From positions 602,679 through 666,678 of the forward strand of contig NZ_KZ987724.1 of the NCBI RefSeq assembly GCF_003614185.1: a stretch of DNA of 64,000 nt, read 5' to 3'. Under the pieces are notes generated by a model that saw only the letters and a program-made list of their open reading frames with translations, did no database searches and had not been told where the DNA came from. The stretch's first letter is position 1; each line of letters begins with the position of its first letter. Both the position numbers and the translations under genes were made by a program. Of this stretch, positions 12,856 to 43,060 are shown piece after piece. The DNA is from Paenibacillus aceti (GTDB taxonomy: Bacteria > Bacillota > Bacilli > Paenibacillales > Paenibacillaceae).

Positions 12856-13329
12856 ATGGCAAACAAGAGCTATAGTCTAGCTCACACGAAGTGGATGTGC
12901 AAATACCACATTGTGTTCACCCCGAAGTATAGACGGAAAGAGATCTATAATCAAGTGAGGAAAGACTTAATCGAAATTTTCAAACGTTTATGTAAGTATA
13001 AGGGAGTGGACATCCTGGAAGGTCATATGATGCCAGATCATGTACACATGCTGGTAGCGATCCCCCCAAAGATAGCCGTGTCCACATTCATGGGATATCT
13101 GAAGGGGAAAAGTTCGCTAATGATCTTTGAAAAGCACGCGCAACTAAAGTATAAATATGGGAATCGAAAATTTTGGGCAGAAGGCTATTATGTAAGTACA
13201 GTGGGCCTAAATGAAGCAACCGTAGCAAAATACATTCGTGAACAAGAAGCACATGACCAAGCAATAGATAAGTTGAGTGTAAAAGAGTACGAAGATCCGT
13301 TTAGCAGTAACAGGAGCAAAAAGAAATAA
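12856..13329 (+). CDS. tnpA: IS200/IS605-family Y1 transposase TnpA (copy 1)
   Basis: 157-residue HUH single-strand transposase. His-Val-His lies at residues 62-64 in PDHVHMLVAIPP and the likely nucleophile is Tyr126 in VAKYIREQ. KYHIVFTPKYRR near the N-terminus and FWAEGYYVSTVG are IS200-group signatures. No tnpB accompanies it, so this is a one-gene IS200-type element. The protein is identical to the copy at 18483. Confidence 0.95.
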   Translation: MANKSYSLAHTKWMCKYHIVFTPKYRRKEIYNQVRKDLIEIFKRLCKYKGVDILEGHMMPDHVHMLVAIPPKIAVSTFMGYLKGKSSLMIFEKHAQLKYKYGNRKFWAEGYYVSTVGLNEATVAKYIREQEAHDQAIDKLSVKEYEDPFSSNRSKKK

Positions 13330-18338: not shown

Positions 18339-19099
18339 ATTATGGCTTTAGCCAGTTGAGTGCGTGAAACGCGCGAAACAAAAAACCACCCGCTATGCGG
18401 GTGGAGGGATCGAGGGTTTGACCAATAAGACCATCCCGATAGAATTGAGATGTTCAGGCTCAATTGAAAGGAATGGTCTTAGATGGCAAACAAGAGCTAT
18501 AGTCTAGCTCACACGAAGTGGATGTGCAAATACCACATTGTGTTCACCCCGAAGTATAGACGGAAAGAGATCTATAATCAAGTGAGGAAAGACTTAATCG
18601 AAATTTTCAAACGTTTATGTAAGTATAAGGGAGTGGACATCCTGGAAGGTCATATGATGCCAGATCATGTACACATGCTGGTAGCGATCCCCCCAAAGAT
18701 AGCCGTGTCCACATTCATGGGATATCTGAAGGGGAAAAGTTCGCTAATGATCTTTGAAAAGCACGCGCAACTAAAGTATAAATATGGGAATCGAAAATTT
18801 TGGGCAGAAGGCTATTATGTAAGTACAGTGGGCCTAAATGAAGCAACCGTAGCAAAATACATTCGTGAACAAGAAGCACATGACCAAGCAATAGATAAGT
18901 TGAGTGTAAAAGAGTACGAAGATCCGTTTAGCAGTAACAGGAGCAAAAAGAAATAAACCAGTTTAACTGGTTAGTGAAAGTGACAAATTACACTGAGCCT
19001 GAACAGATTTGTGGTCAGGCTAGCGTCTTTAGGCGCAGTTTGGCAACAGGGGGTTATACCCCAAGTGCAAACCACCCGTTGGACGGGTGGTCATGATTT
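18334..19099 (+). mobile_element. IS200-type insertion sequence, copy 2
   Basis: Matches copy 1 (12707-13472) with a constant offset of 5627 bp, including end hairpins and leader stem. It separates the PchR-like AraC gene from the Fur box and ABC transporter genes. Confidence 0.9.
18483..18956 (+). CDS. tnpA: IS200/IS605-family Y1 transposase TnpA (copy 2)
   Basis: Protein identical to the copy at 12856 over all 157 residues, with the same HVH motif (62-64) and Tyr126. Identity of the whole element, including non-coding ends, points to recent transposition or recombination. Confidence 0.95.
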   Translation: MANKSYSLAHTKWMCKYHIVFTPKYRRKEIYNQVRKDLIEIFKRLCKYKGVDILEGHMMPDHVHMLVAIPPKIAVSTFMGYLKGKSSLMIFEKHAQLKYKYGNRKFWAEGYYVSTVGLNEATVAKYIREQEAHDQAIDKLSVKEYEDPFSSNRSKKK

Positions 19100-25480: not shown

Positions 25481-25503
25481 TAACGAAACACCATATCGCT
25501 ATT
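25481..25503 (+). repeat. Single family-1 repeat unit with a degenerate second unit
   Basis: TAACGAAAC-N5-ATCGCTATT, identical in pattern to the units at 32677, 34767 and 40623. A weak match (TAGCGGTACAATGC) begins exactly 50 bp on, at 25531. The reverse half is missing; the DJ-1 terminator and gene follow. It looks like a decayed or half element. Confidence 0.6.
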
Positions 25504-25548
25504 TCCCAAAATTCAGCGGTAAAATAATTCTAGCGGTACAATGCAAAA

Positions 25549-31054: not shown

Positions 31055-32491
31055 TTAATCGGTCAAGCTATGCAGCGCCTCGGCGAATTTAGCGATACCA
31101 CTCTCGATCTCCTCGGTCTTCGCTCTGGCGTATGTGAAGCGGACGAAGCCGGAATCCGAGCCGTAGACGCTGCCGGGTACGAAGACGACACCCCTGCGGA
31201 TCGCTTCATCCAGCAGCCTGCCATCCGGTACCTTGGGGGCGAGCATGCACCATAAATGCAGGCCGCCTTGCGGAGTGACGAAGGAGATCTGATCGCCCAG
31301 CTCCCTCTGCAGGGAGTCGATGACCAGGTCCCGCTTGAATTGGAGCTGGATTTGCAGTCGATCCAGATGGGGCTGGAAATAATCCGATCTTATGAATTGG
31401 GCGGCGACCTGCTGCGGGATGACACTCAAGCCGAAATCCATCTGCTGTCTGGCATCAGCCAATCTCTGCACGATCGAATTCGGAGCGACCATCCAGCCGA
31501 TCCGCAGGCCTGAGGCGGCGATTTTGGAGAAAGAGCCGATGTAGAGAATATTGCCGTTCGAATCCATCGATTTGAGCGGTGCAGGCGCGCTTCCTTCAAA
31601 TGCGGTCAGGCTGAATGGGTCATCCTCTACAATCGGAAGCCCTAATTCACTGGCGACAGCGAACAGTTGCTGGCGACGTTCATCGCTGATGACAGCGCCC
31701 GTCGGGTTCTGAAAGTTGGGATTCAGGAATACCATTTTGATCCGATGCTTCTTGTATAACTCCCGTATGTCTTCAGGATGGACGCCATGCTGGTCAACAG
31801 GCAGTCTGAACAGGCGGAGCCCGGCCGATTGGAACATCGGCAGCGAGTAGCAGTAGGAAGGATCTTCGATCGCTACTGCATCCCCGGGGGACAGCAGGCA
31901 TTGTGTGATCAAATACAGCGACTGCTGGGAGCCCGAGGTGATCATGATCGATGATTCCGTCGCCTGAATGCCCCGGTACTTCTGCAAGTAATCGACCAGG
32001 GCTTGTCTGAGCGGCATATATCCCTGCGGGTTATCGTAGCCCAGATAGGAGGCATAAGTATGCTCTCGCATCAGAGCGGCGATTTCATCCAGCGGCGCTA
32101 AATCCGCAGCCAATTCACCGCTTGCCAAATCGATCAGAGAAGGATGCTGACTAAGCGCATCCCGGATTTTGCGCAGAAAAGGCAAATTGGGCAGGAAGCT
32201 CCCGCCTTCGGCATATCGGTTCCAATTCGGTGTATGCTTGGGCATCGCGCCCCATTTGGTGCGGCTTACCCGCGTCCCGCTGCCGGTACGGCTCTCAATG
32301 ATCCCCATCGCCCTTAGTTCGGCGAACGCCAGGATGACGGTGCTGCGATTCACGCCGAGCTGCTCCGCCAGCTTCCGCTCAGAGGGGAGCAGACTGCCTG
32401 GAGGGAACTCGCTATAGGCGATTCTCTGCTCCAGATGATCGGCAATTTGTTCATAGAGCGGTTTTTTGCTCTCACGGTCTGGTTTCCACAT
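31055..32491 (-). CDS. MocR-type regulator (GntR wHTH plus aminotransferase-like domain)
   Basis: 478 residues. The GntR HTH covers ~10-75 (LPSERKLAEQLGVNRSTVILAF). The PLP lysine is Lys323 in GSFSKIAASGLRIGW, with the ring aspartate in VEDDPFS (about 290). Closer in layout to the copy at 36451 than to that at 15804. It is divergent from the nitrilase gene, from which a family-1 repeat element separates it. Target unknown. Confidence 0.9.
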   Translation of the reverse strand: MWKPDRESKKPLYEQIADHLEQRIAYSEFPPGSLLPSERKLAEQLGVNRSTVILAFAELRAMGIIESRTGSGTRVSRTKWGAMPKHTPNWNRYAEGGSFLPNLPFLRKIRDALSQHPSLIDLASGELAADLAPLDEIAALMREHTYASYLGYDNPQGYMPLRQALVDYLQKYRGIQATESSIMITSGSQQSLYLITQCLLSPGDAVAIEDPSYCYSLPMFQSAGLRLFRLPVDQHGVHPEDIRELYKKHRIKMVFLNPNFQNPTGAVISDERRQQLFAVASELGLPIVEDDPFSLTAFEGSAPAPLKSMDSNGNILYIGSFSKIAASGLRIGWMVAPNSIVQRLADARQQMDFGLSVIPQQVAAQFIRSDYFQPHLDRLQIQLQFKRDLVIDSLQRELGDQISFVTPQGGLHLWCMLAPKVPDGRLLDEAIRRGVVFVPGSVYGSDSGFVRFTYARAKTEEIESGIAKFAEALHSLTD

Positions 32492-33174
32492 GCTTTCACC
32501 ACCAAAGAATGTAATTCACGCTTTATTGTGATTTTCATCATACCACTGATCTTCGGTGTGAATGGGCCGCTTTTCATCGTAACCTTGACAATTGTTTTGC
32601 GATTCTTTGAACATGAACGGGTCTTGAGGCGATAAATTGGCTGGTGCTGCCCGCGAAATAGAGACTACTCTGATTGTAACGAAACTACATATCGCTATTT
32701 GCCACAAAAGGAGCGATTTCAAATTCTAAACGAAACTATGTATCGCTATTGCAGCAAAAAAGGGGCCAAACGGCAGGTTTTGACCCGAATAGCAATATGG
32801 TGTTTCATTAGATTTGAATGGGGGCTGATTTGACTCGAATAACGATATGGAGTTTCGTTAGAGCTCCAGGAGATTTGCCAGACTTGCCCAATTTGTCAGT
32901 GCTTTTCAAAAGCCTGCATTTCTGCAGGAATTTACCTTTGAAGAGGTGGCGCTCCAAATCACTGTTTGCCGAGTAACCGCCAGTAGGCCCAGTATAACGA
33001 ATATCGTGAATAGAGTATCTAATGCCGAGTGGATGGCTGCACAAACCGTAAATTGGATGGTTACAATTCGTGCTCTATTGGAGGGTTCATTTTGATCCAG
33101 TCTCTTCTATCATAATGTTCAAGGTTCGGTACCTCAATCCAGTGTTGCACTCCATAATAGAGAGGGATGATAAA
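32492..33174. other. 683-bp intergenic region with a repeat element
   Basis: It contains the MocR promoter side, the family-1 element at 32677-32860 and about 300 bp before the nitrilase in which I see no gene. An in-frame extension of the nitrilase frame back to 33070 has no ribosome site and is not family-like. Confidence 0.6.
32677..32860. repeat. Family-1 four-unit element, copy B
   Basis: Units matching TAACGAAAC-N5-ATCGYTATT lie forward at 32677 and ~32728, and reverse at 32788-32810 and 32838-32860. Spacing is ~51, 60, 50 bp. The outer and inner unit pairs are complementary, so the element can form an interrupted hairpin with about 73-nt arms. Confidence 0.8.
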
Positions 33175-34125
33175 GTGAGAAATCGGCGTGTGAAAGTAGC
33201 GGTCGTCCAAGCCGCGCCGATCTTGTTCGATAAGCAGTCCGCCATGGACAAGATAGCCAAGATGACGAAGGAAGCAGTTGAACAGGGGGCGGAGCTGATT
33301 ATCTTCCCGGAAGTATTCCTGCCCGGATACCCGCGCGGTCTGAGCTTCGGAGCACGTATCGGAAGCCGCACTGCCGGTGGGAGGAAGGATTGGGAGCGCT
33401 ATTGGTCCAGCGCCATCACTGTTCCGGGGGACGAGACGAAGCAGATCGGCGAATGGGCCAAGGAATGGGGAGTTCATCTCGTCATCGGTGTCGTGGAGCG
33501 TGATCAGGAGTTCAGCACAGGCACCTTATTCAACACGGTCATCTATATCGGGCCTGATGGCAAGCTGCTAGGCAAGCATCGTAAGCTGGTTCCTACCGGC
33601 TCCGAGCGGCTACTATGGGGCCAAGGCGATGGCAGCACGTTGACGGTGATCGACACTCCGTTCGGCAGAGTAGGTGGACTGATCTGCTGGGAAAATTATA
33701 TGCCGCTGGCGCGGACAGCCATGTATGCCCAAGGCGTTGATATTTATGTTGCCCCGACGGCGGATGCGCGGGATTCCTGGCAGGCGACGATTCGCCATAT
33801 TGCCTGCGAAGGTCGCTGCTTTGTCCTCTCCTGCAATCAGTTCGCGACCAAGGAATCCTATCCAGCGGATCTGGCCTACTATTCGGATCTCGAGCAAGAT
33901 CCGGATGTTCTCAGTAGAGGGGGAAGCGCGATTGTCGGCCCGTTAGGTGATTATGTCGTCGAGCCGCTGTATGACCAGGAAGGGATGCTCGTGGCTACGC
34001 TGGATCTGTCCGAAATTGCGCGGAGCCGATTTGACTTTGATGCGGTCGGACATTACAGTCGCCCGGACGTCTTTCAATTAATCGTGAATGCGACGAAGCA
34101 GGACATTGTACGGAGAAATCAGTAG
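33175..34125 (+). CDS. Nitrilase
   Basis: 316 residues from GTG 33175, behind AGAGGGATGA. This start gives the usual nitrilase beginning KVAVVQAAPILFDK. The catalytic triad is Glu46 (FPEVFLPGYP), Lys137 (KHRKLVPT) and Cys171 (LICWENYMPLAR), with GSERLLWGQGDGS between. The CWENYMPLAR motif marks true nitrilases, which hydrolyse R-CN to carboxylic acid and ammonia, rather than amidases. Substrate unknown. Followed 20 bp later by an HD-domain gene, perhaps one transcript. Confidence 0.92.
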   Translation: MRNRRVKVAVVQAAPILFDKQSAMDKIAKMTKEAVEQGAELIIFPEVFLPGYPRGLSFGARIGSRTAGGRKDWERYWSSAITVPGDETKQIGEWAKEWGVHLVIGVVERDQEFSTGTLFNTVIYIGPDGKLLGKHRKLVPTGSERLLWGQGDGSTLTVIDTPFGRVGGLICWENYMPLARTAMYAQGVDIYVAPTADARDSWQATIRHIACEGRCFVLSCNQFATKESYPADLAYYSDLEQDPDVLSRGGSAIVGPLGDYVVEPLYDQEGMLVATLDLSEIARSRFDFDAVGHYSRPDVFQLIVNATKQDIVRRNQ

Positions 34126-34145
34126 ACATCTATATAGCATGAAGC

Positions 34146-34739
34146 ATGAAAAAGGGGATGGAGAGAGTGAACAATAGCTTGAGAGAACGGTTGGAGACGA
34201 TCCTGCTGACGACGGATGACATCGCCTTGGTGGAAGAAGAGCTGCTATCGATCGTGCCGGAGCTGATCGTCTGCAAAGCGTGTGCGCAGAATATGCCGGC
34301 ACATCGTCTGCCAGTGCTACTTCATACTTACGAGGTGGTGGATGGAGTAAGGAAGAATCTCGTCTTGAAGCTGGCCGCATTATTCCATGATATCGGCAAG
34401 CCTTACACGAAGGTCACACGAGATGGTGTAGACAGCTTCAAGGGGCATGAAGAGATCAGCGTCATTCTGGGAGATTTCATCCTGCAGCGTCTCGGCTTCG
34501 ACGATATGATTCGGCGGGAGGTCGGCATGCTCGTCAAATACCATGATACTGCATTATTCCCGAGCCCGGAGAGCATGGACGATATTACGGGTAAAATAGG
34601 CATAGATCTGGTGCTGCCTTTGCTGGAGCTGCAACTCTCTGATCTGCTGGCGCATTCCGAGCAGAAGGTGAAGGCTCTCTTGCCGCAAAGGGAGGACACG
34701 CTGAAATTTTTCCTCAGCAGTGTGGGCAGTAAGCTGTAG
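34146..34739 (+). CDS. HD-domain phosphohydrolase-like protein
   Basis: 197 residues. The HD metal motif reads HRLPVLLHTYEV (first His), ALFHDIGKP (His-Asp, about 75-76) and GHEEIS, with LVKYHDTALFP further on, resembling the HD part of tRNA nucleotidyltransferases. No nucleotidyltransferase domain is present. The start is uncertain: ATG 34146 or GTG 34167 are both possible. Substrate unknown. Confidence 0.8.
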   Translation: MKKGMERVNNSLRERLETILLTTDDIALVEEELLSIVPELIVCKACAQNMPAHRLPVLLHTYEVVDGVRKNLVLKLAALFHDIGKPYTKVTRDGVDSFKGHEEISVILGDFILQRLGFDDMIRREVGMLVKYHDTALFPSPESMDDITGKIGIDLVLPLLELQLSDLLAHSEQKVKALLPQREDTLKFFLSSVGSKL

Positions 34740-34766
34740 TGATCCTGCGGAACGGAGCTGGAGCTC

Positions 34767-34949
34767 TAACGAAACACCATATCGTTATTTTCGCTAAAAC
34801 AGCGATAAATAAAAATTAACGAAACACTATATCGCTAATCGGGTTAAATTCGACTCCAAATCCATTAAACCAGCTGAAGAACGATCTCCAGTTTCGTTAC
34901 ATTTCTCAGCCGCCCTTTTCGGCGCAAATAGCGATCCCCTGTTTCGTTA
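34767..34949. repeat. Family-1 four-unit element, copy C
   Basis: Forward units at 34767 and 34817; reverse units at 34877-34899 and 34927-34949. Spacing is exactly 50, 60, 50 bp. The first unit reads TAACGAAAC-ACCAT-ATCGTTATT. The 27-bp spacers in each half are weakly complementary too. It lies between the HD-domain gene and the ArsR-type gene. Confidence 0.85.
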
Positions 34950-35029
34950 GAATAAAGGGAGGCCCGAGCTCTTAGGGCTTCCCTTTTCCCATGTCACTTG
35001 CCCTATTTACGCTAGCGGTCGATCATGTT

Positions 35030-35053
35030 ATTATCATTTTATAAAATGATAAT
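35030..35053. promoter_or_regulatory. 24-bp perfect palindrome, likely autoregulatory operator
   Basis: Half-site ATTATCATTTTA followed by its complement, ending 17 bp before the ATG of an ArsR-type regulator. It overlaps the only plausible promoter position. Confidence 0.65.
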
Positions 35054-35070
35054 GGTTAAGGAGCAGTACA

Positions 35071-35613
35071 ATGACTAAAAAGGCCGATCTATTACTTCAT
35101 CCCGTACGTATGCGCATTATCCAACAATTGCTGTTAGGCAAACCGCTAACGATAGCTCAGCTTGCCGCATTGCTGGGCGATGTGCCCCAAGCCACTTTAT
35201 ATCGACATGTCAATCTTCTGCTGAAAGCGGAGTTGATCGAGATCGCCGACACGAAAAAGGTCAAAGGGACGGAAGAACGGCTATTTGCGGTAAAAGAAGA
35301 TAACCTGAAGATTCCCGAAAATGAGATTGAAACGACTTCGATTGAGGACCACATCCGTTATTTTTCCGTATTCCACGGTAATTTGCTGCAATTAGCAACC
35401 ACATATCTGTCGAATACGCCGCCCGATCAGTACAAAGCAGATGGGTTCGGATATTGGTCGACACCGTTCCATGCGAGTGATGAGGAATTCATAGAGCTTA
35501 TTCAAGCCATTAACCAATGCCTGGAGAAAGTCATGGATAATAAGCCAGCGCCAGAGCGGAAGCCGCGCCTATTTGCCGGCATGTTCATTCCGCAGAAATC
35601 GGAGCCAACTTAA
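35071..35613 (+). CDS. ArsR-like winged-helix regulator
   Basis: 180 residues. The wHTH spans ~8-75 (HPVRMRIIQQLLLGKPLTIAQLAALLGDVPQATLYRHVNLL). The C-terminal ~100 residues are helical and contain no metal-binding Cys cluster, so a metal sensor is unlikely. Ribosome site AAGGAG. A palindromic operator precedes it. It is 17 bp ahead of a small PH-like protein gene, its probable partner. Confidence 0.88.
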   Translation: MTKKADLLLHPVRMRIIQQLLLGKPLTIAQLAALLGDVPQATLYRHVNLLLKAELIEIADTKKVKGTEERLFAVKEDNLKIPENEIETTSIEDHIRYFSVFHGNLLQLATTYLSNTPPDQYKADGFGYWSTPFHASDEEFIELIQAINQCLEKVMDNKPAPERKPRLFAGMFIPQKSEPT

Positions 35614-35630
35614 AGAGGAGGAGAGCCATA

Positions 35631-35978
35631 ATGGGTATGCAAGTCGTGTTAGGTGAACGTGAGTTAAGTGTGAAGATTTCGGGTATGGAAGTCTACGCTA
35701 TTTTGAAAAAAGAGCTTAAAATCCCCTATGCTTCGATCGTGAATGTGCAGACGGGCAGCTTCGAGTTTCCTTTGACCGCGGTAAGAAGAACAGGGATTAC
35801 GACAATGGGTTATAAGGCGGGGAGCTTTGTAATCCATGGGGAGAAATATTTCCTATCCTATCACAATGCTCATCAAGTCGTCATTCTCAGCCTCAAGGGG
35901 GCTGAATTCGATAAAATCGTGTTGGAGAGCGAAGCTCCTGAGCAACTGGCGAACGATATTCGGGCACGCTGTTCATGA
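35631..35978 (+). CDS. Small PH-like domain protein
   Basis: 115-residue, mostly beta-strand protein ending in a helix (APEQLANDIRARC). The segments VKISGMEVYAILKKELKIPYASI and KAGSFVIHGEKYFLSY fit bacterial pleckstrin-homology-like domains. No membrane helix. Strong AGAGGAGG site; co-transcribed with the upstream ArsR-like gene. Function unknown. Confidence 0.7.
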   Translation: MGMQVVLGERELSVKISGMEVYAILKKELKIPYASIVNVQTGSFEFPLTAVRRTGITTMGYKAGSFVIHGEKYFLSYHNAHQVVILSLKGAEFDKIVLESEAPEQLANDIRARCS

Positions 35979-36051
35979 TATGAAGCGGCATGGTAGGGTG
36001 TAGGGTGCTTGATCATGCCGTAAAATCTATAAAAAGCAGGTGAGATGTTTA

Positions 36052-36424
36052 GTGCTGCATTATAAAGAATACGGTGATAAAAGGGCTTCCCTGCTGCTGT
36101 TTTTGCATGGCGGCGGAGTGAGCGGGTGGATGTGGGATGCCAGATCTACCCGGACATGGGGCGAGTAAGGATATCCCCTTCTCAATACAGGACAGTGCGG
36201 ACCGATTAATTCAGCTCATCGAGGAAAAAGCGGCGGGAAAGCCCGAGGGAAGCGAAGTCATCCTGATCGGGTTTTCTTTAGGTGCTCAAGTTATCATTCA
36301 ACTATTAAGCATGAGACCGGATCTAGTCGCTGTTGCCCTTCTCAATAGCGCGCTGGTCAGACCGAATGCTCTCATCCGCCAACTTATCCGGCCTACGGTC
36401 AGATTATCTTTTCCAGGAATGTAG
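36052..36424 (+). pseudogene. Alpha/beta hydrolase, broken by internal deletion and 3' truncation
   Basis: GTG 36052 opens LLLFLHGGGVSGWMWD, the oxyanion loop of an alpha/beta hydrolase, and then stops at 36166-36168 in frame 1. In frame 2, PDLPGHGASKD (from 36140) and the nucleophile elbow IGFSLGAQ continue until a stop at 36422-36424. About 17 residues between the blocks are missing and the frame shifts. The C-terminal third, with the catalytic His, is absent. Confidence 0.8.
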
Positions 36425-36450
36425 AGTAATCCGTTAAAAGACTATGTTCC

Positions 36451-37887
36451 TTATGTTCCTTCCACAATAGCTCCATATAGAAGGTTCAGGCCTGTCTCTA
36501 GCTGTTCAAAGCTGGCGTAGGCGTAAGAGAGGCGGATATGGTGAAAATCCTTGGCATCGTATATATACCCTGGATTAATGAGTACCTTCTGCTTCATGAG
36601 CTTGAGGAACAGGGCTTTGTTCACCAGCGGCTCATGGAGACGCAGCCAGATGTAGAATCCGCCTGTCGGCTCATGCCAGGTAGCGATGCGGCTGAAACGG
36701 CTCCGCAAAATTCCCGTAACGAAGTCGGCTCTCTGCTTAAGCTGTCCCCGCAGCTGAACGATATGTTGCTCATACAGCCCCGATTCCAGCCAATGCCTGG
36801 CGATCTGCTGCGAGAATGCGCTTGACCCGTAATCGGTCTGCATCTTGATGTCCGCCAGCCTGTCGATGACTGGCTCGGGAGCGATGACCCAGCCGATGCG
36901 CAGGCCAGGGCTTAAAGTCTTGGACATGCTGCCGATATAGAGCACTTGGCCGGAGGTATCCAGAGATTTAAGCGCCGGCGGGATCTCACCGAATGCCAGC
37001 TCGTGATACACATCATCTTCGATGATGGGAATTTGCTGGGCGGCGCCTATTTGCAGCAGCTCCCGGCGTTCCTCCAGGCTCATGATTGAACCGGTCGGAT
37101 TATGCAATGTCGGTACAGTATAGAACAGGGATTGTTTTTTGCCTTTCATAGCTCTGATTTGCTCAAGCCAATGGTTATCCCGCTCCCCTCTTTCCAAGGA
37201 GATGATTCTCATTCCCGCAGACTGGAAGGGACGGACTGAGTTTAAGTAGGAGGGGGATTCCTGAAAAACGGTCGAGCCCGGCTCCAGCAAACCTAGCGAA
37301 ATTAACTGCAGAGCCTGCAGCGCGCCGGATACGATCATAATACTGTCGGGTGTGACGTGAATTCCCCTCTGGATGGCATATCTGCTGAGAGCATGACGCA
37401 GCGGTCTGCTCCCCTTCGGTTCAGAGTAGCCGATATCCCGGGCGGTGAGCGAGATGTCCTGCAGCGAGCGCTGCAGGGCTGCTGTCGGCAGTAGCTCTGG
37501 GGATAGTTCCCCGGTTCCTAGCCGGATGATATCCTCCCGCTGCTCATATTCATTAATAAGCTGGATCGTCTGGAAATTCGGTTCATAAATGCTGGAGGAG
37601 ATATGCTTCTCCCAATCCGGATGATTGCTCTTCACCAGCACATTCCAGCTATTGTTGGATACATAGGTTCCATCGCCGACTCGCGCAGACAATATTCCAT
37701 CGGCCACCAGTTCTTCAATCGCATTAACGATGGTGCTGCGGTTAACCCCCATAGCTTCGGCCATTTTTCTCTGCGGCGGAAGCTTCGTATGGATCGGCCA
37801 TTCACCGCTTTGAATGCGCTGCTTGATCCAATCTATGATTTGCTGATGTATGGTCAGATGAGAGTGGCGGTTTGGCAGCCATTTCAT
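36451..37887 (-). CDS. MocR-type regulator divergent from a LysE-family exporter
   Basis: 478 residues from the ATG at 37887 (minus), behind GGAG. The frame is open further up to 38013, but that part is not conserved-looking. GntR HTH ~10-75 (LPPQRKMAEAMGVNRSTIV). The PLP lysine is Lys323 (GSMSKTLSPGLRIGW), with IIEDDVYHE before it. Its start is 113 bp from the divergent LysE gene, which it probably controls in response to an amino acid or amino-acid-PLP adduct; that is inference. Confidence 0.9.
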   Translation of the reverse strand: MKWLPNRHSHLTIHQQIIDWIKQRIQSGEWPIHTKLPPQRKMAEAMGVNRSTIVNAIEELVADGILSARVGDGTYVSNNSWNVLVKSNHPDWEKHISSSIYEPNFQTIQLINEYEQREDIIRLGTGELSPELLPTAALQRSLQDISLTARDIGYSEPKGSRPLRHALSRYAIQRGIHVTPDSIMIVSGALQALQLISLGLLEPGSTVFQESPSYLNSVRPFQSAGMRIISLERGERDNHWLEQIRAMKGKKQSLFYTVPTLHNPTGSIMSLEERRELLQIGAAQQIPIIEDDVYHELAFGEIPPALKSLDTSGQVLYIGSMSKTLSPGLRIGWVIAPEPVIDRLADIKMQTDYGSSAFSQQIARHWLESGLYEQHIVQLRGQLKQRADFVTGILRSRFSRIATWHEPTGGFYIWLRLHEPLVNKALFLKLMKQKVLINPGYIYDAKDFHHIRLSYAYASFEQLETGLNLLYGAIVEGT

Positions 37888-37999
37888 AGGCGTACAACTC
37901 CATTCTTTAAATTGGTTGGTTTCCTTGCCATCCAATTGGTCGTTCCTATTATGTATACCATATTTATAATAGAAAGAAAAAGAGTGGAGGACATCAAAA

Positions 38000-38623
38000 T
38001 TGCAGGCTTTCATCCATGGCGCGGTACTCGCCTTCGGTCTTATTTTGCCGCTGGGCGTTCAGAACATCTTCGTATTTACTCAAGGCGCAGAGCAGCCAGC
38101 GTTGCGGAAGGCACTGCCGGCTGCGATCACTGCGGCGGTCAGCGATACATTGCTTATTTTGCTCGCTGTGCTGGGTCTATCGGTTATTGTAGGAGAGGTG
38201 GAATGGCTTCGGATCACGCTGATATGCGGGGGGATTGTTTTTCTCGGGTATATGGGATATTCCTTATGGAGAACGAAGCCGGAGGCAGGGCACAGCCCCA
38301 ATCGAGGTGGACTATCTGTCAAAGAGCAGATTCTCTTCGCTCTCTCAGTCTCCCTATTAAATCCCCATGCCATTCTGGATACGATCGGCGTGATTGGAAC
38401 GAGCGCGCTGCGTTATACGGCGGCTGACAAGCTAGGGTTCACGGCTGCTTGCATCCTGGTCTCATGGTGCTGGTTCCTCGCCCTGACCATCGCCGGACGG
38501 CTATTGAAGCAGCTTGATGGAACGGGAAGAATCCTCGTTATCATCAATAAATGCTCAGCCGTCTTCGTCTGGCTCACGGCGGTCTGGCTGTTGCTTGACC
38601 TCATGGGTTGGAGTCCAAGCTAA
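38000..38623 (+). CDS. LysE/ArgO-family amino-acid exporter
   Basis: 207 residues with about six membrane helices. LILPLGVQNIFVFTQG near the N-terminus and SVSLLNPHAILDT in the middle are LysE-family signatures. Start is TTG 38000, 9 bp after GTGGAGG. It is divergently coupled to a MocR regulator. Family members export lysine, arginine or related cationic amino acids; the exact substrate is not readable. Confidence 0.9.
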   Translation: MQAFIHGAVLAFGLILPLGVQNIFVFTQGAEQPALRKALPAAITAAVSDTLLILLAVLGLSVIVGEVEWLRITLICGGIVFLGYMGYSLWRTKPEAGHSPNRGGLSVKEQILFALSVSLLNPHAILDTIGVIGTSALRYTAADKLGFTAACILVSWCWFLALTIAGRLLKQLDGTGRILVIINKCSAVFVWLTAVWLLLDLMGWSPS

Positions 38624-38837
38624 GCATGCTCTAAGGAGCATATGATACTAGTAATCTGACAATCCGAATGATCTGCTAGAGCAAGCAAAAATCTGGAAGA
38701 CAAAATTCAGGAATAATAGAACAAACGGTAGGAAGAAAACAGCCTAGGTGTTCTGTATGATAGACATATAGACACGTCACAGAATTTATAGTATGGACAG
38801 AACAATTCTGGGCTGAATGGGCAGGAGGAATCGAGCA

Positions 38838-39563
38838 ATGACTAGAGTAACGGTATGGAATGAATATCGACATGAGCAGACGGACGCTAAGGTCCGCGAA
38901 GTATATCCAGAAGGAATTCACGGTCAATTGGCCAGCTTCTTGAAGGAAGCAGGTATGGAAGTAAAGACAGCGACATTGGAACAGCCGGAGCATGGACTGA
39001 CTGAGGAAGTGCTTAAAGATACTGATGTACTGATCTGGTGGGGACATGTTGCCCATCAGGAAGTCAGCGATGAAATTGTAGATCGGGTGCATCGTCATGT
39101 TCTGCGCGGTATGGGGCTTATCGTACTGCATTCGGCGCATATGTCGAAGATCTTCATGAAGCTGATGGGTACGAGCTGCGATTTGAAATGGCGTGAAGCG
39201 AATGAGCGTGAGCGTCTGTGGGTCATGGACCCGAGCCATCCGATTGCGGAAGGTATCGGTGAATATATCGAGCTGGAGCAGGAAGAAATGTATGGCGCTC
39301 ATTTCGATGTACCGGCACCGGAGGAACTGATCTTCGTCGGCTGGTTCGAGGGCGGTAATGTATTCCCGAGCGGTTCGACTTATCGCCGTGGTAACGGGAA
39401 GATTTTCTACTTCCAGCCAGGTCATGAGACACATCCAACATATTACCATCCAGACATTCAGAAGGTGATCATTAACGGTGTGCGCTGGTGTGCGCCAGTG
39501 AAACGTGATTATCCGGTCTATGGCCATTCCGAAGCACTGGAGAAGATCAGCAAGAAGAATTAA
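38838..39563 (+). CDS. ThuA-like (trehalose utilisation) protein
   Basis: 241 residues from ATG 38838 behind GCAGGAGGAA. A class I glutamine amidotransferase-like fold. [44 protein letters not shown] and [21 protein letters not shown] are conserved in the ThuA family, which modifies sugars such as trehalose or related glycosides by an unclear mechanism. It begins the run of mannoside genes and is followed by its own terminator. Confidence 0.9.
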
Positions 39564-39583
39564 TCAGGGATTTATAGGAAGCT

Positions 39584-39630
39584 AACGGGCGGGCCTCGCG
39601 TGAATATCGCGGGTCCCGTCCTTTTTGTGC
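39584..39630 (+). terminator. Rho-independent terminator of the ThuA-like gene
   Basis: GC-rich stem ACGGGCGGGCCTCGCG / CGCGGGTCCCGT with a TGAATAT loop, followed by five T residues. Confidence 0.8.
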
Positions 39631-39703
39631 TGGTTTACAACCTATATCATATTGTCTAATATAGTCAGTGAGTCTAAGACAACCGAGAGTACGAGGGATG
39701 ATT

Positions 39704-40573
39704 GTGAGCATTTATTTGGAACTTCCGGAATTGAACAAGGATTTTTCGTTCAGGAGCTTTATTGATCTTGGCACCGGGTTATGCTACCCGCACTGGCACA
39801 AAGAGATCGAGATTATATATGTGACAAAAGGGAGCTTCGAGCTGGGCATTAACGATGTTCCGATTCGAATGCATGCAGGCCAGATTCAGTTCATCGCAGG
39901 CGGGGATGTTCATTATTTCCTGGCCGCGCCCGATGGCGAGCGGATCGTCATTCAATTTGATCTGAGCCTGTTCTATGATTCATCCACCGATGCGGAACGC
40001 AAAAAATCGATCAGTGATTCCTTCATGAAGATGGAGCATTCGAGCTGGAAGTGGCCTGAGCCTGTGGCGGAGCGGATGCGGGCGTTGGTGCAGGACATGC
40101 ATGAAGAGAATATAGCGCGTCAGGAAGGCTATATGTATATGGTTAAGGCCCGGTTATTTGAAATGCTGCCGATGATATTCAGGGATATTCCTCGCAATGA
40201 AATGGCCGAGTACGCCAGTAACGGGAATATCCAGTCGCGTGAGACGCTAGAGCAGCTGGAGCGGGTCTTCTCCTATGTGGAGGAGCATTATCAGGAATCG
40301 GTCACACTGAAGGAAGTGGCGGAGTATATGGGCTTCGATCCGTTCTATTTCAGCCGACTGTTCAAGAAGAATACAGGTAAGAATTTCATTACATTCTTGA
40401 ATGAATACCGCTTGAATAAGGCCAAATGGCTGCTGCTAACCGAGGAAGGCTCGATGGCTGATGTCGCCGAAGCCTCGGGCTTCGGCAGTGTGAAGACCTT
40501 TCACCATTTATTCAAGGAGGCTACGGGGCTCTCACCGCTGAAATATAGGAAGACACTGGCTGGAAAAGAGTGA
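39704..40573 (+). CDS. AraC-family regulator with cupin sensor domain
   Basis: 289 residues from GTG 39704, 7 bp behind GAGGGA; an ATG at 39698 is too close to that site. The N-terminal cupin (about 1-130; CYPHWHKEIEIIYVTKGSFEL) binds sugar-type ligands. The C-terminal double HTH is at ~190-285 (KEVAEYMGFDPFYFSRLFKKNTGKNF). It lies between the ThuA-like gene and GH92 and likely responds to a carbohydrate. Target inferred from position. Confidence 0.88.
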   Translation: MSIYLELPELNKDFSFRSFIDLGTGLCYPHWHKEIEIIYVTKGSFELGINDVPIRMHAGQIQFIAGGDVHYFLAAPDGERIVIQFDLSLFYDSSTDAERKKSISDSFMKMEHSSWKWPEPVAERMRALVQDMHEENIARQEGYMYMVKARLFEMLPMIFRDIPRNEMAEYASNGNIQSRETLEQLERVFSYVEEHYQESVTLKEVAEYMGFDPFYFSRLFKKNTGKNFITFLNEYRLNKAKWLLLTEEGSMADVAEASGFGSVKTFHHLFKEATGLSPLKYRKTLAGKE

Positions 40574-40622
40574 AGCTAGAGCCTGGGGTGCGACCGCCAC
40601 AGCTGGGGACACAGCTAACAGC

Positions 40623-40805
40623 TAACGAAACTGAGACACGCTATTTAGGCAAAAATGAGGCCGTGGGAAATGTAACGAAACACCATATCGTTATTAGGGA
40701 GAAAAAGCGGCCAATTCGCGTTAAATGAAGCAAATAGCGCTACCACGTTTTGTTAGAAAGTGAGAAGGCGTAAAATGGCCTCAATAGCGATGCACAGTTT
40801 CGTTA
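40623..40805. repeat. Family-1 four-unit element, copy D
   Basis: Forward units at 40623 and 40673, reverse units at 40733-40755 and 40783-40805, spacing exactly 50, 60, 50 bp. It lies between the convergent AraC and GH92 genes. Unit sequences differ from copies B and C mainly in the five central bases. Confidence 0.85.
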
Positions 40806-40870: not shown

Positions 40871-43060
40871 CTATTTTGATATCGAGAAAGGAAGTTCTTC
40901 TGGCTTATAGTCGCGGTAGCTAGGAGCTAAGCCGAGACGGAAGTCGAGCGTCTTGCCTTCAATAATGTCTTCATGGGTGATGTACAGCTTGGTATAATCC
41001 TGTCCAGCCAGCTTGACACGAGATACGAAGTTGGACTGCGGATTATTGTTGTCCGTATGGATCTGCATCTGCTTGCCGTTAGGCAGCTCGATCGTCACCT
41101 CATCGAATAGCGGGATGCCGAGCACGTACTCGCCGCTGCCAGGGGATACTGGATAGAAGCCCATGGAGCTGAATACATACCAGCCTGCCATACTGCCGTT
41201 GTCCTCGTCACCAGGATATCCGTCAAAGCCGCTGTTGAACAGATGCGTGACGATCTGCTTGATCACGACCTGTGAAGAAGCCGGCTGTCCGACATAATTG
41301 AACAGATACGGAATGTGGAAGCTCGGCTGATTGGAGATGGCCACTTGCCCGAAATCGACCGCTGCCATTTCACTCATCTCATGAATCTCGAAGCCATAGC
41401 CGAGCACATCGAAATCTGGCGCCTTATTGCATAGCTCGGTGAGCTTATCGAAGAAGCGCTCCTTCGAGCCATAGGCATCGATCAGCCCTTGGAAGTCCTG
41501 GAATACGGCGAAGCCGTTCTGCCAGGCGCTGCCTTCGGCATAATCCCGTCCCCAGCTCGTATCGTTGAAGTCTGGACGGAACTGGCCGTTCTGATCCTTC
41601 GCCCGCATGAAGCCGAGCTCGGCATCGAAGATGTTGCGGTAGTTCCGTGCGCTCTCGCGATACTTGTCAGCGATATCTGTCTTACCGAGTAATTCGGCGA
41701 CACGGCTGATGCAATAATCACTATAGGCATAGTCCAGCGTGTGATTGACGCTCTCGTGATAGTTGCTCGGAACGTAGCCATATTTAATGTAGTCCAATGT
41801 GCCCTGACGGCCGTAGCAGCTCTGCTCGCTCTGGGTCGTCGCTGCCGTTAACATCGCTTCCAGCAGCTCAGGCATCATATCCATCCCGATCCCCTTGGTC
41901 GCGGCATCGGCGATTACCGCATCGATCAAGGTACCTGGCATCAAGCCGCGCTCATCAGGCGATAACCATTTCGGCAGGAAGCCGGTCTCGCGGTAAGAAT
42001 TCAGATAACCCTCCAGCATCTCGGCATATTCCTGTGGCGCGATGATGGAATAGAGCGGATAGACGGTTTTATAAGTATCCCAGAAGCCGTTATTCGTGTA
42101 TAATACGCCTTTCTTGACCGCTCTTGCTGTCGTATCGTAATGCACCGGCTCCATATTGGCATCGAGCTCATAGAACTTCTGCGGGAACAGGAACATGCGG
42201 TACAAGCAGGTATAGAAGGTGCGTAGATACTCTTCATTGGAATGAGACACCTGGATTTTATTCAAATAATGATTCCAGCTTTGCGCAGCCTTGTCTTTCA
42301 GCTCATCTATCGATAGCTCCAGCTCTCGTTTCAGGTTAAGCATAGCCTGTTCGCTGCTGATGAAGGAAGTCGCCAGCTTGACATGAAGAGCATCGGTCTC
42401 GCAATCCTTGAAGCGGATCACGAAGTGACGATCCTTGCCGCTGACGGATGCCTCGCTATAGAGCTTGCCCTCTTCATCATAGTAACCGGAGGTAGCAAGA
42501 TCGATCTCCTTGCTGAAGCTCATGGCGACATACATCCGGAATTGATCATCATGACAACCGGCAAAATTACTAACATATCCGGTAAGACGACGATTTGCAG
42601 CATCGAGATGCCATTCGCTGATATTCTTCACATTCAACACAAGCCCGGCCTGATGGCGGGAATTGTATTGGATGCGCAGGGCAGCTCCATAGCAAGAGGG
42701 AACGAGTTCGCTCGTAATGTTATAACGCTGCTGTTTCACCTTGACATAGTTCGGCTTGAAGACGGCCTCTTCCGGCCGGTATGAGCTCTGGCAGGTGAAG
42801 ACGGTGCCTCTAATTTTGTCATCCGCAATAGGTGTCATCAGGAAATGGGAGAAATCCCCCATCCAAGGACTTGGTTGATGGGTAAGACGGAAGCCCTGGA
42901 AGACACGGTCCAGCGGATTGAAGAACCAGCTTCCCTCATCATTCGTCTGAACGACATAATGATTCATGCCGAACGGTACGGCTGTATAAGGGAGTGTGTT
43001 CCCATTCGAATAAGAATGCTTGTTGTTGGAGCCTTGTCTAGTATCGATATAATGCAGCAT
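40871..43060 (-). CDS. GH92-family alpha-mannosidase
   Basis: 729 residues, cytoplasmic since no signal peptide is present. GH92 enzymes are calcium-dependent inverting exo-alpha-mannosidases. The N-terminal beta domain (about 1-240) contains SNGNTLPYTAVPFGMNHY. The (alpha/alpha)6 barrel has GFWDTYKTVYPLYSIIAP, HEMSEMAAVDFGQVAISNQPS and GDEDNGSMAGWYVFSSMGFYP, which carry the family's catalytic acids. Transcribed away from GH125/GH38, directly downstream of its GntR-LacI regulator gene, 39 bp apart. Confidence 0.93.
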   Translation of the reverse strand: MLHYIDTRQGSNNKHSYSNGNTLPYTAVPFGMNHYVVQTNDEGSWFFNPLDRVFQGFRLTHQPSPWMGDFSHFLMTPIADDKIRGTVFTCQSSYRPEEAVFKPNYVKVKQQRYNITSELVPSCYGAALRIQYNSRHQAGLVLNVKNISEWHLDAANRRLTGYVSNFAGCHDDQFRMYVAMSFSKEIDLATSGYYDEEGKLYSEASVSGKDRHFVIRFKDCETDALHVKLATSFISSEQAMLNLKRELELSIDELKDKAAQSWNHYLNKIQVSHSNEEYLRTFYTCLYRMFLFPQKFYELDANMEPVHYDTTARAVKKGVLYTNNGFWDTYKTVYPLYSIIAPQEYAEMLEGYLNSYRETGFLPKWLSPDERGLMPGTLIDAVIADAATKGIGMDMMPELLEAMLTAATTQSEQSCYGRQGTLDYIKYGYVPSNYHESVNHTLDYAYSDYCISRVAELLGKTDIADKYRESARNYRNIFDAELGFMRAKDQNGQFRPDFNDTSWGRDYAEGSAWQNGFAVFQDFQGLIDAYGSKERFFDKLTELCNKAPDFDVLGYGFEIHEMSEMAAVDFGQVAISNQPSFHIPYLFNYVGQPASSQVVIKQIVTHLFNSGFDGYPGDEDNGSMAGWYVFSSMGFYPVSPGSGEYVLGIPLFDEVTIELPNGKQMQIHTDNNNPQSNFVSRVKLAGQDYTKLYITHEDIIEGKTLDFRLGLAPSYRDYKPEELPFSISK

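What the first reader, a model, noticed from the sequence alone, without database searches (positions are those of the whole stretch)
32677..40805. Four-unit inverted elements with fixed 50/60/50-bp geometry in three intergenic regions
At 32677-32860, 34767-34949 and 40623-40805 the same ~23-bp unit (TAACGAAAC-N5-ATCGYTATT) occurs four times, two forward then two reverse. Start-to-start spacing is 50-60-50 in two copies and about 51-60-50 in the third. The five central bases and the 27-bp spacers vary while outer unit sequence and geometry are kept. That suggests selection on a structure (a ~183-nt hairpin with paired outer and inner units, or a protein-binding array) rather than simple copying. 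I know of no named element with this layout.
Basis: seen in the sequence. Interest (0 to 1): 0.75.

Follow-up and report, generated by a model that had tools for sequence, protein, structure and literature searches.

The report
Four-site DNA arrays scattered across Paenibacillales
Scattered through the gaps between genes of Paenibacillus-like bacteria are about 183-base elements carrying four copies of one recognition sequence at fixed distances, which look like docking sites for an unknown DNA-binding protein rather than RNA hairpins or ordinary jumping-gene remnants.

Summary
In detail: three complete FFRR elements (51/60/50, 50/60/50, 50/60/50), plus a decayed copy at 25481. The genome holds 642 unit matches, against 2 for a reversed control, and 87 elements with exact ends. 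The two-unit signature (spacing 50 +/- 1) occurs in 115 of 247 Paenibacillales genomes, control zero, and in 2 of 272 genomes elsewhere in the class. Bases 6-9 differ by lineage; geometry stays, except 50/70/50 (+10 bp) in one genus.

At five orthologous sites outer arms changed 2/180, outer spacers 75/269 (p about 1e-16), so arms and spacing appear selected in place. One probable orthologue has decayed, and most resolvable sites are empty in relatives.

The hairpin reading fails: partner units agree no better than non-partners (p = 0.74). No target duplication, transposase neighbour, RAYT dependence or Rfam match was found; element 2 has no phage or plasmid BLAST match.

Best reading: a symmetric four-site double-stranded-DNA array for an unidentified lineage-specific protein, probably chromosome-structuring, spread by an unknown copying process. 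Protein and function are inferred, not shown.

The parts
32677..32860 (+). Element 1, FFRR 51/60/50 (184 bp), in the gap between divergent ORFs 31055-32491(-) and 33070-34125(+). Units 32677-32699(+), 32728-32750(+), 32788-32810(-), 32838-32860(-).
   Evidence: no element detected at the syntenic place in G008, a differently built one in G003
34767..34949 (-). Element 2, FFRR 50/60/50 (183 bp), between two ORFs on the + strand (34146-34739 and 35071-35613); B-half first, so polarity minus. Units 34767-34789(+), 34817-34839(+), 34877-34899(-), 34927-34949(-).
   Evidence: orthologous element with identical geometry in G003 and G008, outer arms 0/36 changed in each of the three pairings
40623..40805 (-). 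Element 3, FFRR 50/60/50 (183 bp), between convergent ORFs 39668-40573(+) and 40871-43060(-); polarity minus. Units 40623-40645(+), 40673-40695(+), 40733-40755(-), 40783-40805(-).
   Evidence: orthologous element in G008 (one copy) and G003 (five tandem copies)
25481..25503 (+). Truncated further copy: one perfect forward unit; what looks like a decayed second unit arm lies 50 bp on (near 25531), the rest is missing.

Best explanation
Each element is a two-fold symmetric double-stranded-DNA assembly site. A lineage-specific DNA-binding protein, not identified, recognises the 23-bp unit TAACG-x4-N5-NNCGYTATT. It reads TAACG and the YTATT side in all lineages seen and the four bases x4 differently in each lineage. 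Four units placed F-F-R-R at 50/60/50 (one genus 50/70/50) let it form one nucleoprotein complex over about 183 bp, with sites and A/T tracts near one helical phase (about 10 bp). Shown: units, geometry, lineage distribution, lineage-specific bases, conservation of arms and spacing at five orthologous sites, no detected bias in gene context, lack of partner-specific base pairing. Inferred: that a protein binds, that it wraps or bridges the DNA, and that the role is chromosome structuring rather than regulation of neighbouring genes (no promoter or terminator bias). Copies are gained and lost over species time by an unknown duplication process for which no target-site duplication was found.
For: Outer arms 2/180 changed against outer spacers 75/269 at five orthologous loci, one pair per locus (3/396 against 148/593 over all 11 accepted pairs). 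Geometry unchanged in 10 of 11 accepted pairs (one 1-bp loss), while 17 of 18 comparisons of 100-bp flanks at three loci contain gaps, up to 44 columns. Geometry recurs across genera while bases 6-9 change. Two discrete lengths: 181-185 (mode 183) in 24 elements of 7 genomes, 187-194 (mode 193) in 15 elements of 6 genomes of one genus (coordinates typed from the partial lists). Partner units agree no better than non-partners (difference 0.005, p = 0.74). Position 3:19 is not a standard pair in 28 of 49 first and 21 of 49 second units, so the small unit hairpin is often broken. Context 16 tandem/8 divergent/7 convergent (31 of 34 elements) against 150/78/52 gaps of 220 bp or more, p = 0.86. A/T tracts share one phase at 10 bp in all three spacers.
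Against: No binding protein found. One probable orthologue has decayed arms (G000 C1:2030485, outer arms 6/36 changed against G003), and incomplete or irregular clusters are common (24 of 58). Most resolvable G000 elements are missing at the syntenic place in relatives (13 of 19 in G003, 10 of 15 in G008), which suits a mobile element at least as well. 132 of 247 genomes of the order show no match to the signature, so any function is dispensable or served by other sequences. Periodicity: 12.0 bp scores slightly higher than 10.0 when all spacers are pooled; the +10 geometry is probably one evolutionary event. Long-hairpin pairing counts are high on A1, partner agreement on the larger set of 153 elements is borderline (0.008, p = 0.06), and RNA folding of element 2 is strong (z = -4.8), as any inverted repeat would be.
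Confidence: 0.55

Rival explanations
1. Non-autonomous transposon (MITE-like): F-F and R-R are the two ends of a lost or rare transposon, each end carrying two transposase-binding sites as in Mu/Tn7-type ends (recalled); arms and spacing are kept because only copies with good ends multiply.
For: High copy number, inverted ends, no coding capacity; lineage-specific arms; syntenic sites often empty in relatives: G000 elements against G003, 6 with a full element in the interval/13 none; against G008, 4 full/1 partial/10 none; tandem arrays in G003.
Against: No target-site duplication signal in 49 element flanks, outward offsets 0-24; no FF...ORF...RR composite seen by eye in the 1.2 Mb listing; no recurrent transposase recognised by eye among the 25 largest protein groups near elements in 80 loci; no BLAST match of element 2 in phage or plasmid records and one signature match in viral contigs; arms conserved in place at five orthologous loci, which transposition alone does not explain.
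Confidence: 0.27
2. A structured RNA or single-stranded-DNA hairpin of about 183 nt.
For: 86.3% of arm cells pair and 195 cells show two-sided change against 105.8 in shuffles; folding z = -4.8 for element 2.
Against: The covariation is shared by all four units and is not partner-specific; in three P. ginsengihumi loci (L175, L201, L203) F2 has AAAC or TAAC where R3 has CTTG, CAAG or CTAA; unit centres do not pair in the AAAC lineage, mostly as composition predicts, with a mild further deficit at position 12; no Rfam match; no bias in gene context.
Confidence: 0.08
3. REP/BIME-type repeats moved by a RAYT (Y1 HUH) transposase.
For: Palindromic intergenic units in composite arrangements at more than 100 copies resemble BIMEs.
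Against: G003 (138 full elements) and G008 (57) have no Y1_Tnp match, while three same-genus genomes without a signature match have 7, 8 and 20 (G214, G009, G018).
Confidence: 0.03

Closest known systems
BIME / REP elements of enterobacteria and pseudomonads
   Same: Dispersed, high-copy, intergenic, composite arrays of short imperfect palindromes; lineage-specific sequence.
   Different: Four units F-F-R-R at 50/60/50; no dependence on a Y1/RAYT gene; no enrichment in 3' gene contexts. REP properties partly recalled.
Bacterial MITEs (bcr1, RUP, NEMIS, ERIC, EFAR: names from a passage of PMC3733652; details recalled)
   Same: Short, inverted ends, no coding capacity, intergenic, variable occupancy between relatives.
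   Different: No target-site duplication found; subterminal units alike to the terminal ones; arms conserved in place over species time at five loci; wide distribution in one order with changing arm sequence.
Transposon ends with several transposase sites (Tn7/TnsB, Mu/MuA; recalled)
   Same: Repeated ~22-bp sites, inverted between the two ends.
   Different: No transposase gene seen between or beside them; no 5'-TG...CA-3' ends; only about 37 bp between the innermost units.
Chromosome-organising sites (parS/ParB, matS/MatP, Noc sites; recalled)
   Same: Many chromosomal copies, bound as double-stranded DNA, not tied to gene orientation.
   Different: Those are single palindromes; here a four-site array; no regional clustering among 51 listed copies over 0-2.95 Mb (7-10 per 0.5 Mb).

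Membership tests
REP/BIME with RAYT | Cognate Y1 transposase (RAYT) in genomes with many copies | tested here: not met
   PF01797: 0 matches in G003 and G008, which hold 138 and 57 full elements
REP/BIME with RAYT | GTAG or CGTC tetranucleotide at the hairpin foot | tested here: not met
   The bases before the first unit are most often A, T/C, T, C in the 26-element flank table; defining tags from the title and abstract start of PMC3733652
MITE | Terminal inverted repeats, short, no coding capacity | tested here: met
   3 of 34 elements overlap short ORF calls
MITE | Target-site duplication | tested here: not met
   best excess 12 against 5.4 of 49, k = 2, over k = 2-10 and outward offsets 0-24 on each side: noise
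MITE | Parent transposon with the same ends | tested here: inconclusive
   none seen in 1.2 Mb of the own genome or near 80 loci; about 4.4 Mb of the own genome not read
Structured RNA | Partner-specific compensatory change | tested here: not met
   (p = 0.74 on 49, p = 0.06 on 153 elements), against the apparent covariation
Structured RNA | Match to a described RNA family | tested here: not met
   zero matches: window, gathering scores; 32600-35000, E up to 1
Protein-bound DNA array | Sequence-level conservation of sites and spacing in place | tested here: met
   (five loci; one probable counter-example)
Protein-bound DNA array | A protein that binds it | not testable with these tools
   needs DNA-affinity or ChIP

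The most novel reading that the evidence does not exclude
A previously undescribed chromosome-structuring system of Paenibacillales: up to hundreds of symmetric four-site arrays per genome, each wrapped or bridged by a protein whose DNA specificity at four bases has drifted from lineage to lineage together with all its sites, while the ~10-bp-quantised geometry stayed fixed.
Probability: 0.27. Interest if true: 0.85.

Novelty: new variant of a known kind. Interest (0 to 1): 0.62.

Why it matters
The element is widespread in one order, abundant and regular, and I found no description of it (searches; open-licence papers only). It offers a natural experiment: a site family whose recognition bases change between lineages while its architecture does not, so the cognate protein could be found by co-variation. 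If it organises chromosomes, it adds a class of multi-site nucleoprotein element; if it is mobile, it is a high-copy element without a detectable target duplication and without a known mover.

Tried and rejected
Rfam, window and element region: nothing. RAYT/Y1: rejected as a requirement. TSD search: nothing. Shared neighbour gene near 80 loci: the 25 largest protein groups shown were judged by eye only, mostly ABC-transporter permeases and histidine-kinase-like families common in Paenibacillus (no domain search). Terminus depletion suggested by the truncated list: rejected, because one search lists elements there. Polarity against gene direction: 7 same and 9 opposite in 16 tandem gaps, counted by eye; polarity along the chromosome: 22 plus and 29 minus among 51 listed copies, read by eye; neither tested formally. 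One search used a wrong unit length (N13 for N11) and therefore missed the own genome; it happened to find relatives with 25-nt units. Alignments of empty sites did not give an insertion point, because intergenic DNA has diverged too far. Phage and plasmid BLAST used only element 2, so they test only its own lineage of units; the viral-contig scan used the general signature and found one contig. One search (second synteny query) found no match in G003 or G008, so that region (2.7-2.9 Mb) was not compared. An attC-like unpaired centre was considered for the AAAC lineage and set aside, because other lineages do not show it.

Selections that matter: alignment A1 (49 rows: 47 of 48 loci found in 80, plus two window elements) was chosen for 183-bp geometry, so its lack of gaps is by construction; L226 was left out as doubtful and window element 1 because it is 184 bp. 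In one search, which fixed only the first 50-bp spacing (matches of other lengths dropped), 53 of 100 FF pairs had the reverse arms end at exactly +133 and +183 (45 directly, 8 more preceded by a hit at 71), and 5 at +143/+193; some elements are counted there from both strands. In one search, 4 of 15 candidate pairs were dropped for spacer-plus-middle divergence of 0.45 or more (635355, 134612 twice, 2030485). Of these 2030485 looks like a true decayed orthologue; 134612 has opposite polarity in G000. In one search spacers of unequal length were gapped or trimmed at the middle, and for tandem arrays the best-matching copy was used. The 'full' counts include any FFRR inside the syntenic interval, so they include 635355 and 134612, which are probably not orthologous. 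Sites called empty could hide copies decayed beyond detection where the interval is long.
Full report
Observation. Units exceed chance by about two orders of magnitude in the window (14 against 0.10 expected) and in the genome (319+323 against a reversed control of 0+2). The pattern with both 9-bp ends occurs 87 times, control 0. In 1.2 Mb of tiles, 34 of 58 clusters are FFRR of the expected geometry (lone units with 3 or 4 mismatches dropped); FF = 50 in 42 of 46, RR = 50 in 39 of 41, FR = 60 in 36 of 46. A further partial copy lies at window 25481.

Anatomy. The unit is a 23-bp imperfect dyad, TAACGAAAC-N5-ATCGYTATT. In the own lineage the element has a polarity: one half has G-rich centres (TGGGT, GTGGT), the other C-rich (ACCAT, TACAG) when read in unit orientation. 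By eye this polarity is unrelated to gene direction (7 same, 9 opposite in 16 tandem gaps). 31 of 34 elements lie outside called ORFs and 3 overlap short ORF calls; gap types match the background (p = 0.86). The gene calls are a simple longest-ORF heuristic. Copies of one subtype share further flanking similarity of some tens of bases, by eye, so the duplicated unit may be longer than 183 bp there.

Distribution. The two-unit signature is found in 115 of 247 Paenibacillales genomes, in 30 of 43 genera, with no reversed-control hit in any of them. In a class-wide draw of 299 genomes, 16 of 27 genomes of the own family matched, but only 2 of 272 genomes outside it. Bases 6-9 differ by lineage (AAAC, GACA, GACT, AATC, GTTG, GCGG, CTAG and others). 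Total length is 181-185 in 24 elements of seven genomes and 187-194 in 15 elements of six genomes of one genus, modes 183 and 193 (from partial lists). Five named loci (P. xylanexedens, P. amylolyticus, P. polysaccharolyticus) also have the 193 form. The signature fixes the first spacing; the second half was free, where 53 of 100 pairs had the exact 183 geometry.

Selection in place. Regions of G003 and G008 syntenic with three parts of the own genome were read. At five loci the element is orthologous in at least two of the three genomes. One pair per locus gives outer arms 2/180, inner arms 14/180, centres 22/100, outer spacers 75/269. Over all 11 accepted pairs the figures are 3/396, 31/396, 49/220 and 148/593. 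Geometry is unchanged in 10 of 11. Against this, four of 15 candidate pairs were dropped; one (2030485) looks like a decayed orthologue with 6/36 outer-arm changes, two (134612) have opposite polarity and are probably not orthologues, and one (635355) is built differently in G003. Random copies within G000 differ at 46% of spacer and middle positions on average, so orthologous pairs (15-39%) are closer but overlap with the low tail.

Turnover. Of resolvable complete G000 elements, 6 have a full element in the G003 interval and 13 none; at G008 4 full, 1 partial, 10 none. G003 to G000 6 full, 2 partial, 3 none; G008 to G000 4 full, 3 none; G003 to G008 5 full, 1 partial, 3 none; G008 to G003 5 full, 2 none. 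'Full' there includes non-orthologous elements. G003 carries tandem arrays of whole elements, one with 60-bp spacing between elements. No target duplication was found, and divergent intergenic DNA prevented a clean empty site.

Hairpin or double-stranded DNA. On A1 the long hairpin shows two-sided change in 195 cells against 105.8 in shuffles, which would normally be read as support. But all four units carry the same lineage-specific bases. If pairing were the cause, partners (F1-R4, F2-R3) would agree better than non-partners (F1-R3, F2-R4). They do not: difference 0.005, p = 0.74 on A1; 0.008, p = 0.06 on 153 elements. Inner arms agree more within an orientation than between hairpin partners (p = 0.0004 on A1). 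The small unit hairpin lacks a standard pair at 3:19 in 28 of 49 first units and 21 of 49 second units. Element 2 folds strongly (z = -4.8), as inverted repeats must. Sequence-specific recognition of double-stranded DNA fits better.

Phasing. A/T tracts in the three spacers share one phase at 10 bp, and the middle spacer alone peaks at 10.4-10.5 bp. Pooled power at about 12 bp is slightly higher, so this is suggestive only. The 183/193 difference is about one helical turn, but rests on what is probably one clade.

Mover. A RAYT is excluded as a requirement. No recurrent transposase was recognised near the elements (by eye). Element 2 has no BLAST match in 72,556 plasmid or 50,697 phage records, and the signature occurs in one viral contig.

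Conclusion. I commit to a protein-bound double-stranded-DNA array (0.55), with a MITE-like transposon-end origin as the main rival (0.27); the two are compatible if a mobile element was domesticated. The specific role, chromosome structuring, is inference. Literature: listings of seven searches and 'find' passages of PMC3733652 and PMC2267715 (neither mentions Paenibacillus in its main text) held no such element; most subscription papers are not covered.

Noticed in passing
window 12889-13245 and 18516-18872: Two IS200-type Y1 transposase matches (own-genome C1:615567-615923 and 621194-621550); the genome has 14 such matches.
   Followed up: partly
window 32913-32928: Palindrome CCTGCATTTCTGCAGG 53 bp downstream of element 1 (13 of 100 shuffles give one as well); similar hairpins recur in the flanks of several other copies, by eye.
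   Followed up: partly
L344, G003 C10 from 2604999: Tandem array of five complete elements with 60-bp spacing between elements, giving 20 units in a 50/60 rhythm.
   Followed up: partly
G000 C1:564532: A second unit type (TAACGGAAA...) with 50-bp spacing in the same genome, suggesting two coexisting lineages of the element.
   Followed up: no
L357 9541-9723: One complete element in a viral contig (IMGVR_UViG_3300002855_000222); possibly host DNA beside a provirus.
   Followed up: no
G000 C1:217994; G008 block G8b 133086: Solo units in intervals where G003 has a complete element, which look like deletion products.
   Followed up: partly
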